NCBI GenBank assembly: GCA_030692045.1
Contig: JAUYCX010000041.1
Span: 1 to 64,000, forward strand
Direction: 5' to 3'
DNA length: 64,000 nucleotides
Source of the DNA: Candidatus Omnitrophota bacterium
GTDB lineage: Bacteria; Omnitrophota; Gorgyraeia; JAUYCX01
Positions 4,561-56,356 of this stretch are shown here, in pieces. Both the position numbers and the translations under genes were made by a program. Below the pieces are notes generated by a model, which had not been told where the DNA came from, searched no databases, and saw nothing but the letters and a program-made list of their open reading frames with translations. Each line of letters opens with the position of its first letter. Position 1 is the stretch's first letter.

Positions 4561-4659
4561 GTATATCTGGAAAGACAAGTTTGTCAAGGCTTTTTTTAAT
4601 TTTTTAAAGGCCTGAATTTAAAAGAAAGATTTGATTAAGAAAAGTTATTATGGAACGAC

Positions 4660-4851
4660 CCACGGGCAAGCCCGTGGTACCTATATTTACCCCGCCTCGT
4701 AAGATGTGCCAAAATTCTCTACGATAATTTTGGCACACTCGGCGGGGTTATCCGCCGACTTGCTTTGGGCTTGCCCCTTAAGTGACATCCGCCGAAGCAT
4801 TATTTCCCATTTATCCCCGAGCAAGCTCGGGGTTTTCTGCGAAGGCGGATA
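4660..4851. repeat. Nested palindromic intergenic element
   Basis: CCACGGGC/GCCCGTGG; CCCCGCC [GTGCCAAAATT...AATTTTGGCAC] GGCGGGG; CCCCGAGC/GCTCGGGG; ATCCGCC...GGCGGAT. Confidence 0.8.
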
Positions 4852-4882
4852 AAAAAACGATAGCCGCGGGTTGCGGCTATCG
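4851..4882 (-). terminator. Rho-independent terminator for the 4907..5446 gene
   Basis: Minus strand CGATAGCCGC AACCC GCGGCTATCG followed by TTTTTTT. Confidence 0.85.
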
Positions 4883-4906
4883 TAAAATTATAAAAGTTTA
4901 TTTAGT

Positions 4907-5446
4907 TTAATTAGTTATTGAACTTACGTAATTTTGGGTTAGGATTTCTTTTAAAGAATTCCTACAAGCTTCCCCTGGAATTAATACTAAATTGTACTCT
5001 TGATTTAGTAAGCCATGTTTATGATAAGGACTGACCCTAAGAATTCTTGCATTACATCTTATGGAGTTTGCGTAATTAACACTATCTTTATGCTTAAAGA
5101 TTATTTCAACAGGTGTATCTGTGGGTAAGTTCTCAACTATTTTACAAGATATTGCTTCCAAATTGATATCATTTGGCACCGCAGTTAAACATATCTGGTC
5201 TTTTTTAATAACTAACCCCAAATTTAAAGGAAATCTTCTGTAGCGCCTTTTCTCAATAAACAAATCATGTTCTTTATCTTCTTTTAAATAAACCTTCTTC
5301 CAAGCTTCGCCATATTTTTTTATCCAATCTACCGCAGCTGTTGCAAAACCAATCTCTTGACCTCTCTTCTCGCTTTCAATCCATTTATGTTTTCTTATTT
5401 CTGCTAACGCCCTAGAATCTTTCAAAAAAGAAAATCTTTTTTTCAT
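4907..5446 (-). CDS. PilZ-domain-like protein
   Basis: EKRRYRRFPLNLGLVI... followed by PilZ-like beta barrel (NARILRVSPYHKHGLLNQEYNLVLIPGE); second PilZ motif degenerate. Confidence 0.5.
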   Translation of the reverse strand: MKKRFSFLKDSRALAEIRKHKWIESEKRGQEIGFATAAVDWIKKYGEAWKKVYLKEDKEHDLFIEKRRYRRFPLNLGLVIKKDQICLTAVPNDINLEAISCKIVENLPTDTPVEIIFKHKDSVNYANSIRCNARILRVSPYHKHGLLNQEYNLVLIPGEACRNSLKEILTQNYVSSITN

Positions 5447-5586
5447 CCGTGGTCTCCTTTTTTAATAAATTTAAAAGTAATTATAGCAGACTTTGGAATG
5501 AAGTCAAGGTTTTTAAGCGCAACTTAGGAGGATTTTGTCGACGAGTAATTAAAAAAATAAAACACGAAGCGAAAAATTAATAAAAA

Positions 5587-5802
5587 TTATTTAAATTTAC
5601 CTTTTATTGATTGCGGAAGGATATTTTTGTAAAGATCCCTAAAATAATTAAAGAAATTATTCCAGTTCAAACTGTAGCTTGTCCTAAGATACTCTATGCC
5701 GGCTATATCTTCTTTCCATTGTTTAGTAACAATTGTGTTGCTCTTAAAAAAAATAAAACCAATAAAATAGATTATCATGATAATTAGTAGAAATCTTCTC
5801 AT
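5587..5802 (-). CDS. Small membrane-anchored hypothetical protein
   Basis: 71 aa ORF with one N-terminal TM, abuts the next gene. Confidence 0.55.
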   Translation of the reverse strand: MRRFLLIIMIIYFIGFIFFKSNTIVTKQWKEDIAGIEYLRTSYSLNWNNFFNYFRDLYKNILPQSIKGKFK

Positions 5803-5803
5803 T

Positions 5804-6505
5804 TCATTCTCCCTTCTTACTTAAAAATGACTTTTTAATAAAGACGCCCAAAATTATTGCCAAAGCTAAGTAGATTAAACTAAAAACAAAAATAATCTTA
5901 TTGTTTAAAAAATATTCCGCCATCGCATTAGTATCCTTAAAAATACTTAAGCCAACCGCAGCCAAAATAAACTGCAGCCAAAATATGCGCAGTGGCGAAC
6001 CCAATGCACAGGCTAAAAAATACTCCTTAAAGGAAACTCGAGTTAATCCAGCGGCGATATCCAAGAAACGAAAGGGAATAAGTGGCACGGCCCTTAAGAC
6101 AAACACCCCAAAGAATCCCAATTTAGAGATTTTTTTATCAAGATTAGCAAAACTTCCTTTTAATTGGTTTTCTACAAAATGCCTGCCTAAAAAGTGGCTG
6201 AGGTTAAAAAGAATCACGGCATTTATTATTTCTGCCAAGAAAACTAAGGCGCTGCTTAAATACGCACCAAAGATAATCGCTCCCACTACCTTGAAAATGT
6301 CTTTGACAAACCAGATAAAAAAACTTAACACTACATAAAGGAAAATAAAAAGTATACCTGCAATAACAAAGGGAAATTTTAATAAGAGGCTTTGTAAATA
6401 ATTTGTATCGATTTTGCAGTACCGGCCCAATAACCAGCTAAAAAATAGAATTAAAATTAAGGCAAGAAAATTGAAAAGATTTTTTGAAGCAGATTTTTCT
6501 TTCAT
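5804..6505 (-). CDS. TVP38/TMEM64 (DedA/SNARE-associated) family membrane protein
   Basis: Hydrophobic protein with GVFVLRAVPLIPFRFLDIAAGLTRVSFKEYFLACALGSPLRIFW-type signature. Confidence 0.8.
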   Translation of the reverse strand: MKEKSASKNLFNFLALILILFFSWLLGRYCKIDTNYLQSLLLKFPFVIAGILFIFLYVVLSFFIWFVKDIFKVVGAIIFGAYLSSALVFLAEIINAVILFNLSHFLGRHFVENQLKGSFANLDKKISKLGFFGVFVLRAVPLIPFRFLDIAAGLTRVSFKEYFLACALGSPLRIFWLQFILAAVGLSIFKDTNAMAEYFLNNKIIFVFSLIYLALAIILGVFIKKSFLSKKGE

Positions 6506-9654: not shown

Positions 9655-9890
9655 AATGAGCAGACAACTTGTGGAACGAAGTGACCACAAGTTGTAGTCC
9701 GCCACGTTTCTTGGCGGACGTCTGCGAATTGAACCCAGCACTAATTTTTGAAAAAGCGCTTTTTTAAAAATAAAAGGGGAATCTAATAACTAATCCAACA
9801 ATTCTGAATAACGCACTATTACAAAAATTAGTGCTGGGTCAAATTCAGGCTTATAACTTACGTTCGCTTACGCTCCGTAAGTTATGCCTT
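9655..9890. repeat. Composite nested palindromic intergenic element
   Basis: AATGAG-CAGAC-[ACAACTTGTGGAACGAAGTGACCACAAGTTGT]-[GTCCGCCA..TGGCGGAC]-GTCTG-CGAATTGA-[ACCCAGCACTAATTTTTG...CAAAAATTAGTGCTGGGT]-[ATAACTTACG...CGTAAGTTAT]-GCCTTCATT. Confidence 0.85.
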
Positions 9891-10356
9891 CATTTACCCA
9901 TTCCTCAGAAAGAATATCTCCTTGAAGACTTACAACTATAGATTTAACAGGAATCTTTCTCTTGGCTTCTTGTAAAGCTTGCTGTGCCATAGCCACTAAA
10001 CCACCGCAACAAGGCACCTGCATAATCATTACAGTAAGAGTATTAATCTTGGCATCATCAATAAGAGATTTTATTTTTTCCACATACTCATCCTGGCCTT
10101 CATCGAGTTTGGGACAAGCAATGGCAATGCTTTTTCCTTTTAAATAATCTTTATGAAAATCTCCTACGCTATACGCCACACAATCAGCTGATAAAAGCAC
10201 ATCTGCTTTCTGGTAATAAGGTGCCATTGGCGAAACCAAATGAAGTTGTATTGGCCACTGCATAAGTTGTGACTGCCTTTTACCAGACTCATCACCCGCC
10301 GTTTCTTTCTTTCTAAAATCTTGCATTCTTGAACCAGGACAACCTTCCATAGCCAT
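9868..10356 (-). CDS. Fe-S/ferredoxin-like Cys-rich protein
   Basis: MAMEGCPGSRMQDF...QLHLVSPMAPYYQKADVLLSADCVAYSVGDFHKDYLKGKSIAIACPKLD...QVPCCGGL; preceded by AAGGAGG. Confidence 0.65.
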   Translation of the reverse strand: MAMEGCPGSRMQDFRKKETAGDESGKRQSQLMQWPIQLHLVSPMAPYYQKADVLLSADCVAYSVGDFHKDYLKGKSIAIACPKLDEGQDEYVEKIKSLIDDAKINTLTVMIMQVPCCGGLVAMAQQALQEAKRKIPVKSIVVSLQGDILSEEWVNEGITYGA

Positions 10357-54577: not shown

Positions 54578-54645
54578 ATTCCGGGGAACAATTCCGGGGA
54601 CATCATACTGAATTGTCGATAATTAAGTATTGTGTCCCCCGAATT
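54578..54645. repeat. REPIN-like pair of REP sequences
   Basis: AATTCCGGGGAACAATTCCGGGGACA...TAATTAAGTATTGTGTCCCCCGAAT, same motifs as flank the RAYT. Confidence 0.75.
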
Positions 54646-54656
54646 TTCCCGTTATT

Positions 54657-55076
54657 TTATATTGACCAAAATGTTTTTTCCTCAATAACCTTTCCAGTAT
54701 CATCCAACGACACTTCAAATTTCTTGACCTTGGCATTTATAATCAAAGGAAAACCTGAAGTAATAGATACAATTTTTCCCATTACATCATATTTAATTTC
54801 ATTAAAATCGTATCGCCCAATATTTGCTGTATCTTCAATTTGGTAATGATCCACATTACTTATCCGAAGAATTGACTCTACGATCGGTACGCTCAACTTC
54901 TTCATAAAGAGTATCCGCTTAATTATTCTTTTGTCGGCCTGATTTTCTCGCTTTAATTTTATTTCCAGAGAGGCTAAAGAGGCATTAAATTTAACATCAT
55001 CTTTTTCAAACCATTCATCATGAATTAAGCCTACAATTTTATTAATTTCTTCTGGATTATTTATGACAATATTCAT
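54657..55076 (-). CDS. Hypothetical protein downstream of orphan Rhs toxin tip (possible immunity protein)
   Basis: 139 aa ORF 3 nt after the Rhs tip. Confidence 0.55.
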   Translation of the reverse strand: MNIVINNPEEINKIVGLIHDEWFEKDDVKFNASLASLEIKLKRENQADKRIIKRILFMKKLSVPIVESILRISNVDHYQIEDTANIGRYDFNEIKYDVMGKIVSITSGFPLIINAKVKKFEVSLDDTGKVIEEKTFWSI

Positions 55077-55079
55077 TTA

Positions 55080-55361
55080 TTACCTCCCTATTCTAATATG
55101 TAGAGCCTTACCACTACCCTTGATACCCTGTCGCCATATATTTAGTTGAATATGAGGATACTGATGAGGGCCACCAACATGACCTGGGCTAGAACCTATC
55201 TTTCCCATCCAAGTTCCAGTACCAGTACTTGCCGCCCATCCTGATAGAGAAGCAGCGGTAATCAATGTAGACGCTGTTGATTTCCAAGTTTCGGGTGTCC
55301 AGAGAGCAGCAACAGTACCAGGGATTGCCCATAAAGGATTGTAATTCCGGGGACATATCAC
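55080..55361 (-). pseudogene. Orphan Rhs C-terminal toxin tip, detached from its core
   Basis: NPLWAIPGTVAALWTPETWKSTAS...GPHQYPHIQLNIWRQGIKGSGKALHIRIGR*; its 5' end is the REP at the RAYT. Confidence 0.65.
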
Positions 55362-56020
55362 TTAATTATCAGTTTTGGACCCGGTTTCTTCTTATGTAAT
55401 GCTATCCCAAGTTTTCTCGCTAAGTAGTCTATAAAAGCTCTATCCCCTAACGGCCTGCCTGTTTGACCGTGCCTACGAAAGAGCTTCAGGTCTTCTGGAC
55501 TTTCTTCTTCAGATAGATATTCTCTCCAGTCTTTTATTTCCTCAAGAAGATAAAAGTTAGTTAAAATCGGTGTTTCACTTTTATTAACATGGGCTCTAGC
55601 GCTCGACCAGAGATAATCTTCTGCCTTTCTGACAAGTCCAGCTCGAACTGGATTTCTCTCAACGTAGCGAACAGCTGCGTATAAATATCGCTCATCCACA
55701 GGAAAGCTAGAGAATCTGCCTTGCCATAAATAACCACGCCATCCTTCACGGAAATTAATCATACGTGTGTATTTTCTGTGTGTAGTGCCTATGCCTTTAG
55801 CCAAACTATTCTTTATATGAGGAACAACTATTAGATGGACATGATTATCCATTAAGCAATAAGCCCATATATCTAACAAAGAACATTTTGACTCTTCACT
55901 CAAGAGATCAAAATATATCTGTTTATCTTCTTCTTTGAAAAAGACATTCTGTCTGCGGTTGCCTCTTTGAACAATATGATGAGGCATATCCAAAGCTACA
56001 ACCCTTGCTAAACGTGCCAT
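55358..56020 (-). mobile_element. REP-associated tyrosine transposase (RAYT, Y1_Tnp/IS200-like)
   Basis: MPHHIVQRGNRRQNVFF...YCLMDNHVHLIVVP...YLWQGRFSSFPVDERYLYAAVRYVERNPVRAGLV; flanked by GGGGACA REP motifs. Confidence 0.93.
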
Positions 56021-56022
56021 AT

Positions 56023-56337
56023 TTAAATATTTTCATTAATTTCAAGAATTAAGACTTTAATTAAGTATTGTGTCCCCGGAACTCTTGGTGAATAATAGCG
56101 GGCACGATAGTAGTAAAGCCCGGCATCTTCATCAAATTCTCTGCCGGTGAATAAATAGCGATTGCCTATTTGCGATGTTTGGTTAGGATTCTCATAAACA
56201 TCATAAGAGTAGCTTTCCACAACATTTCCCTGAGGATTGGTTATGTCAGTAACACTGCCTAAGCCATCATAGTGGTAATAGTAAGTGTTGGCAGCTCGAT
56301 ACATTGTCAAAACTTCATCAATGCCTTCTCCAAAGTA
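56023..56337 (-). pseudogene. Orphan Rhs core fragment bounded by REP sequences
   Basis: YFGEGIDEVLTMYRAANTYYYHYDGLGSVTDITNPQGNVVESYSYDVYENPNQTSQIGNRYLFTGREFDEDAGLYYYRARYYSP, then REP-encoded codons. Confidence 0.85.
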
Positions 56338-56356
56338 TGTCCCCGGAACTCTGTTT

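What the first reader, a model, noticed from the sequence alone, without database searches (positions are those of the whole stretch)
54578..56352. Rhs orphan cassette dissected by a REP-associated tyrosine transposase
Downstream of the full Rhs protein and its candidate immunity gene lie an Rhs core fragment (GEGIDEVLTMY...YYYRARYYSP), a RAYT, a detached toxin tip and another candidate immunity gene. The core ends exactly at YYSP where REP sequence begins, and the tip begins at REP sequence on the other side. This is an orphan core-tip-immunity module split at the core/tip junction.
Basis: partly seen in the sequence, partly recalled or inferred. Interest (0 to 1): 0.8.

Follow-up and report, generated by a model that had tools for sequence, protein, structure and literature searches.

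The report
Transposase insertions beside Rhs toxin cassettes
In this uncultured bacterium a small transposase sits inside the remains of a spare antibacterial toxin module, and similar transposases turn up just behind about a quarter of the Rhs toxin genes examined in its class, which may help to explain how these modules are broken up and rearranged.

Summary
The observed parts are there. All are on the minus strand: a 252-base Rhs core fragment, a Y1/HUH transposase (RAYT-like) with inverted ends, a headless toxin tip and an immunity-like ORF. Tip homologues are fused to Rhs in other genomes, so this is Rhs debris. The claim of a clean split at the core/tip junction fails: in two uncut homologues 72 and 77 residues lie between the core's YYxP and the tip's NPLW, and here they are absent. 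The core fragment also carries the same 15-base repeat end on both sides.

The wider result is more interesting. In this class (Omnitrophota-like) RAYT genes lie within 5 kb downstream of the Rhs core in 25 of 104 Rhs loci scanned, 24 of 25 on the same strand, as Rhs–immunity–RAYT. Control families: 0 of 30 (HsdM), 3 of 115 (ParE), 2 of 56 (rve). The RAYTs belong to many subfamilies, so the position was colonised repeatedly. Against a RAYT-specific role, rve transposases are about equally enriched near Rhs per element.

Verdict: a recurrent insertion hotspot at Rhs module boundaries, a new variant of the known orphan-module/transposase theme. Active tip shuffling by RAYTs is possible, not shown.

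The parts
56683..61542 (-). full-length Rhs protein, 1619 aa, with its own tip
   Evidence: RHS_repeat 3.3e-79, DUF6531, two 3keto-disac_hyd domains; Rhs_assc_core 6.8e-15
56357..56677 (-). first immunity-like ORF (106 aa, hydrophobic)
   Evidence: position; homologue (39%) behind a homologous tip in L146, G024; no Pfam family
56338..56352 (-). outer REP-like end AGAGTTCCGGGGACA at the 5' side of the core fragment
   Evidence: exact 15-mer repeat
56086..56337 (-). Rhs core fragment, 84 codons
   Evidence: TIGR03696 1.7e-7; 73% DNA identity to the adjacent Rhs core over 195 bases
56058..56085 (-). 5' end of the RAYT element (REP-like)
   Evidence: 24-base inverted repeat with 55345-55368, 88%
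55358..56020 (-). RAYT-like Y1/HUH transposase, 220 aa, open; its TGA overlaps the tip's GTG (GTGA)
   Evidence: Y1_Tnp 1.1e-13; HxH (H60, H62) and Y119 invariant in an alignment of 78 sequences; overlap read
55343..55370 (-). 3' end of the RAYT element
   Evidence: inverted repeats I1, I3
55080..55361 (-). headless toxin tip, 93 aa; homology starts at NPLW (residue 8)
   Evidence: 51% over 72 aa to G182 Rhs, 38% over 87 aa to G045 Rhs; no Pfam, NCBIfam or PADLOC match
54657..55076 (-). second immunity-like ORF, 139 aa
   Evidence: one distant homologue (31%) besides itself in 384 genomes, G144, with no Rhs gene among its listed neighbours
54590..54645 (.). 56-base hairpin made of two opposed REP-like ends (REPIN/MITE-like)
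   Evidence: fold -12.5 kcal/mol, z -4.7; repeats D2, D4

Best explanation
The interval is the debris of a displaced Rhs module (core end, tip, immunity) behind an intact Rhs-immunity pair, colonised by a RAYT element and its REP-like ends; about 220 bases between core and tip were lost. It is one case of a general tendency in this class: the stretch just behind an in-use tip-immunity pair tolerates and retains RAYT elements, so module boundaries become RAYT boundaries. Shown: the parts, the missing linker, the enrichment, the position, the many RAYT subfamilies. Inferred: that insertion followed displacement, that the loss accompanied insertion, and that retention is passive (dispensable DNA between modules) rather than a service to the toxin system.
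For: Tip homologues fused to Rhs. Missing 72-77 residues. In 99 genomes, Rhs clusters with a listed RAYT within 5 kb: 11 of 49, against HsdM 0 of 30, ParE 3 of 115, rve 2 of 56. A second sample, not chosen by RAYT: 13 of 60 Rhs loci, all downstream at 0.56-2.83 kb, 12 of 13 same strand, 0.48 expected. By local scan 12 of 44 in the first set, so 25 of 104. Tree: the 25 Rhs-side RAYTs need 18 changes of label (shuffled mean 20.1) and at least 8 are forced by starred branches. In the same genome a second RAYT type sits at the same kind of boundary (C60, C59).
Against: rve transposases near Rhs: 2 of 56 elements, against 11 of 150 listed RAYTs, not distinguishable (p = 0.52); this favours the passive reading over a RAYT-specific one. 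RAYTs are usually on the strand of the gene before them anyway (51 of 68), so 24 of 25 is a modest excess (Fisher p = 0.017). No uninterrupted version of this orphan module was found, so the order of events is inferred. Close relatives of this RAYT elsewhere are mostly not near Rhs (2 of 80 loci have an Rhs core motif within the held flanks). Nearly all material is draft genomes.
Confidence: 0.62

Rival explanations
1. Active cassette exchange: tip, immunity and RAYT form a unit whose left limit is core homology and whose right limit is the RAYT end. An incoming unit pushes the resident tip downstream and beheads it, leaving a headless tip right at the RAYT's 3' end.
For: Six loci have a second tip-immunity pair right behind the RAYT; homology supports the tip in four: window, C59, L142, L140 (weak, 1.9e-4); L139 and L145 by position only. 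In G024 a homologue of the window's first tip and immunity (40%, 39%) is followed directly by a RAYT 53% identical to the window's. In G145 two Rhs genes share core (77%) and RAYT (88.6%), while the tip-immunity DNA between them does not align. In the window's genome one RAYT type has, by contig ends, three copies, each behind an Rhs module.
Against: RAYTs at Rhs are not one lineage. The G024 RAYT is not the nearest relative of the window's, so the triad need not be inherited as a unit. In most of the 13 second-sample loci the genes behind the RAYT are unrelated. DDE (rve) transposases are enriched alike. [quoted passage not shown]
Confidence: 0.17
2. One reading: a complete orphan core-tip-immunity module cut at its core/tip junction by one RAYT insertion.
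For: Core and tip abut the two RAYT ends, and both are Rhs pieces.
Against: 72-77 residues missing between them; a further copy of the repeat end at the far side of the core.
Confidence: 0.12
3. Unrelated fragments: core end and tip come from different Rhs genes and were brought together by repeat-mediated rearrangement between REP-like ends.
For: The core is bracketed by identical ends on both sides; a further close copy of the full end lies at G000:C92 and a short one at C34.
Against: Order and strand are those of an ordinary orphan module.
Confidence: 0.09

Closest known systems
Orphan rhs-CT/rhsI and cdiA-CT/cdiI modules (Poole et al. 2011, PMC3150448; passages seen)
   Same: A full toxin gene followed by headless or part-headed tip plus immunity gene; [quoted passage not shown]
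   Different: There the interrupting elements are assorted; here RAYTs of many subfamilies recur at one position. Retained homology there reaches VENN or DPxGL; here the tip starts inside the pretoxin.
[quoted passage not shown] passages seen)
   Same: Transposase genes between tip-immunity modules.
   Different: E. coli islands and CdiA; no RAYT or REP is mentioned in the passages seen.
H-repeat of E. coli Rhs elements (PMC3032704, passages; its DDE/ISAs1-type nature is recalled)
   Same: A transposase-like repeat associated with C-terminal tips.
   Different: H-rpt is a different transposase family (recalled); the RAYTs here are Y1/HUH enzymes with inverted ends.
RAYT/TnpA-REP with flanking REPs (REPtrons) (PMC6006769, PMC8266576; passages seen)
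   Same: A Y1/HUH enzyme gene flanked by copies of its own end sequence, with solo copies elsewhere.
   Different: Single ends here do not fold into a hairpin, and I identified no GT[AG]G foot.

Membership tests
RAYT / TnpA-REP | Y1/HUH transposase domain | tested here: met
   Pfam Y1_Tnp 51.8 bits against a cut-off of 23; HxH and Tyr invariant in an alignment of 78 sequences
RAYT / TnpA-REP | reaches the curated NCBIfam REP_Tyr_transpos cut-off | tested here: not met
   58.4 bits, cut-off 80; IS200 model 18.4 against 55, so it lies nearer RAYT than IS200. I therefore say RAYT-like.
RAYT / TnpA-REP | gene flanked by REP-like ends with solo copies elsewhere | tested here: met
canonical REP | single unit folds as a hairpin with GT[AG]G at its foot | tested here: not met
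   three single ends do not fold better than shuffles; only the double copy 54590-54645 does; I saw no GT[AG]G foot by eye (no scan run)
canonical REP | enzyme cleaves the repeat in vitro | not testable with these tools
   needs a cleavage and strand-transfer assay
Rhs orphan module | tip homologous to tips of full Rhs proteins | tested here: met
Rhs orphan module | remnant of core in front of the tip | tested here: inconclusive
   a core fragment is present, but a RAYT lies between and 72-77 residues are missing
Rhs orphan module | cognate immunity gene behind the tip | tested here: inconclusive
   ORF in the right place; its only homologue found (G144) has no Rhs gene among its listed neighbours
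mobile tip-immunity-RAYT cassette | same tip, immunity and RAYT lineage found together in different genomes | tested here: inconclusive
   one triad (L146), but its RAYT is not the nearest relative of the window's

The most novel reading that the evidence does not exclude
RAYTs are the tip exchangers of Rhs loci in this class. Single-strand cleavage at the RAYT's ends fixes the right-hand limit of incoming tip-immunity cassettes and core homology fixes the left-hand one; headless tips at the RAYT's 3' end are the displaced residents, and the RAYT end can even lend them a start codon (GTGA overlap here; starts reading SPE from the end sequence in L145 and L228).
Probability: 0.15. Interest if true: 0.85.

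Novelty: new variant of a known kind. Interest (0 to 1): 0.58.

Why it matters
How polymorphic toxin genes acquire and lose tips is known mainly as recombination in the conserved core; what sets the other breakpoint is open. A transposase type that recurs right behind the tip-immunity pair, in some 20-25% of the loci scanned here and from many lineages, is either a good marker of past module boundaries or part of the machinery. Strain series can tell the two apart. It also suggests that RAYTs, usually described as single-copy and host-serving (recalled), have a preferred neighbourhood in at least one bacterial class.

Tried and rejected
Rejected: a clean junction split (linker missing); a single Rhs-dedicated RAYT clade; an origin of the core fragment as a recent copy of the neighbouring Rhs (73% only); a known toxin family for the tip (no Pfam, NCBIfam or PADLOC match; best solved-structure hit a chance match at E 0.42). 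The zero RAYTs upstream of Rhs cores is no fair control, because upstream is mostly the Rhs gene itself. An impression of a tmRNA gene in L051 was not confirmed by ARAGORN and is dropped. Structure prediction was not run, as only a handful of tip homologues was in hand.

Limits of the samples: the RAYT list shows 150 of 270 matches, the same list for all control families. 44 of 49 Rhs clusters were fetched and scanned. The second sample took 60 loci down the list, not strictly in order; 9 loci close to a contig end were left out beforehand, a few later rows were passed over (a third G145 locus, G314:C63, G135:C31; G182:C160 was already held), and 48 of the 60 had 2.5 kb or more downstream. The 25 are not fully independent: L178 and L181, L220 and L221, L138 and L139, and the window and C60 each come from one genome. 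L228 is the same locus as L020. The Poisson figure uses Pfam-based density against detection by my own HMM, so it is rough.

Full report
What is there. The window is G000:C76 of a 2.19 Mb draft genome in 119 contigs. The core fragment is exactly 252 bases, 84 codons, between two identical copies of AGAGTTCCGGGGACA. The RAYT ORF is open, matches Y1_Tnp at 1.1e-13, and keeps the HxH pair and a tyrosine that are invariant in an alignment of 78 sequences (their catalytic role is recalled). Its outer ends are an imperfect 24-base inverted repeat. Behind the second immunity-like ORF stands a 56-base hairpin made of two opposed ends (z = -4.7). The RAYT's stop codon overlaps the tip's first possible start in a GTGA.

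The tip. It has no match in Pfam, NCBIfam, PADLOC or solved structures. Among 197 genomes two others encode a relative: in G182 it is the C-terminus of an Rhs frame of 1421 aa, in G045 it follows Rhs-type sequence from the contig start. A third Rhs protein, in G235, shares the first 30 residues and then carries another tip, so NPLWxxPG...TPETW belongs to a shared pretoxin segment.

The junction. In G182 and G235 the distance from the core's YYxP to NPLW is 72 and 77 residues. In the window the core stops at YYSP and the tip starts at NPLW, so this stretch, with the GRF and DPxG motifs and the first half of the pretoxin, is gone. The split is therefore not at the core/tip junction in the exact sense claimed.

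Surroundings in the same genome. The RAYT protein has five matches in the genome, the window included. One (C60) lies between a full Rhs with a CPBP-type ORF behind it and a short Rhs of 573 aa with its own signal-like N-terminus (the CPBP and signal-peptide labels are recalled). One (C71) lies about 60 bases in front of a 2559-aa Rhs. Two (C51, C30) have no Rhs in the held stretch. The C60 type has further partial copies at contig ends: its 5' end closes C60 and C59, its 3' end opens C59 and C117. The simplest reading is a chain Rhs–immunity–RAYT–ORF–short Rhs–immunity–RAYT–headless tip–immunity–short Rhs–ORF–RAYT–hicBA (the hicBA label is recalled). In C59 the headless tip starts within about 30 bases of the RAYT's end and is 41% identical over 93 residues to the tip of the C60 short Rhs; the ORF behind it is 33% identical to that tip's immunity ORF. 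So the window's arrangement, RAYT then headless tip then immunity, occurs twice in this genome with two different RAYT types.

Across the class. In 99 genomes I listed Rhs core ends (71 matches, 49 clusters) and Y1_Tnp genes (270 matches, 150 listed). 15 of the 150 lie within 15 kb of an Rhs core, all 15 on its strand. Within 5 kb: 11 of 49 Rhs clusters, 9 of 45 without the window's genome; controls on the same list: HsdM 0 of 30 (p = 0.003), ParE toxin 3 of 115 (p = 0.0001), rve transposases 2 of 56 (p = 0.004). A local HMM scan of 44 of the 49 clusters gave 12 with a RAYT downstream within 5 kb. A second sample of 60 Rhs loci from other genomes of the class gave 13, all downstream at 0.56-2.83 kb, 12 on the same strand, against 0.48 expected from mean density. 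Gene maps show Rhs, then as a rule a small immunity-like ORF, then the RAYT, often 60-200 bases on. Together 25 of 104.

What the RAYTs are. Their ends differ from locus to locus; in some loci no inverted ends above the shuffled level were found. A tree of 65 RAYTs scatters the Rhs-side ones: 18 changes of label, shuffled mean 20.1, at least 8 forced by starred branches (some long branches, and the background rows are partly a sample biased to the window's RAYT). This is repeated colonisation, not one dedicated enzyme.

What follows the RAYT. In the window, C59, L142 and, weakly, L140 the ORF behind it is homologous to Rhs tips; in L139 and L145 a small ORF pair of the same layout follows without homology support. 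In most loci of the second sample the genes behind it are unrelated. In G024 a homologue of the window's first tip (40%) and first immunity ORF (39%) is followed at once by a RAYT 53% identical to the window's, but in the tree it is not the window RAYT's nearest relative. In G145 two Rhs genes are 77% identical over 6 kb and their RAYTs 88.6%, while the tip-immunity DNA between does not align.

Evidence against a special role. Per element, rve transposases are near Rhs about as often as RAYTs (2 of 56 against 11 of 150, p = 0.52). RAYTs elsewhere also tend to share the strand of the gene in front (51 of 68), so the 24 of 25 seen here is a modest excess (p = 0.017). Of 80 loci with close relatives of the window's RAYT only 2 show an Rhs core motif. 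The plain reading, that DNA behind tip-immunity pairs is dispensable and RAYTs are common elements in these genomes, explains most of this.

Literature. Orphan modules, their disruption by IS elements, and arrays with intervening transposase genes are in print (PMC3150448, PMC4927057; passages), as is the H-repeat associated with E. coli tips (PMC3032704; passages). Searches of the open library for RAYT with Rhs (whole word), for 'REP-associated tyrosine transposase' with Rhs, and for Rhs with H-repeat, transposase and orphan returned no paper; RAYT with polymorphic toxin returned three, of which I saw only the listing. Most subscription journals are not in that library, so 'not in print' is not claimed.

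Judgement. Observation confirmed; interpretation right in kind, wrong at the junction. The general association is new to me and testable; an active role for RAYTs in tip exchange remains open.

Noticed in passing
L102:921-2642 and L103:920-2665 (G000:C60, C59): Short Rhs proteins of 573 and 581 aa with similar signal-like N-termini joined to the last part of the core and a tip: possibly self-secreted small Rhs toxins.
   Followed up: partly
L164 (G082:C4:1-13000) and G082:C2:87-100 kb: Long arrays of part-headed Rhs cores, six on one strand in 8 kb of C4, with no RAYT in the stretch.
   Followed up: no
window 56683-61542: The full Rhs carries two 3-keto-disaccharide hydrolase-like (PF06439) stretches in its N-terminal part, unusual for an Rhs protein (recalled).
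   Followed up: no
L145 oriented 5621 and L228 oriented 8647: The RAYT 3' end supplies a GTG start reading SPE to the ORF behind it, so end sequences may lend start codons to headless ORFs.
   Followed up: partly
L025 4835-4910, L018 4788-4860, L053 1539-1824: Repeated partial 5' ends in front of RAYTs, spaced tens to about a hundred bases, as if ends accumulate on that side; the window's core fragment between two ends may be an extreme case.
   Followed up: partly
L051:4450-4895: Another Rhs C-terminal fragment ending at a RAYT element with different ends (GGTGCCACAC type).
   Followed up: partly
L102 oriented 9697-10032, L220 oriented 5608-6261, L208 oriented 4653-5447: DDE-type transposase ORFs (labels recalled) in opposite orientation between immunity ORF and RAYT in three Rhs loci, fitting a general insertion hotspot.
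   Followed up: no
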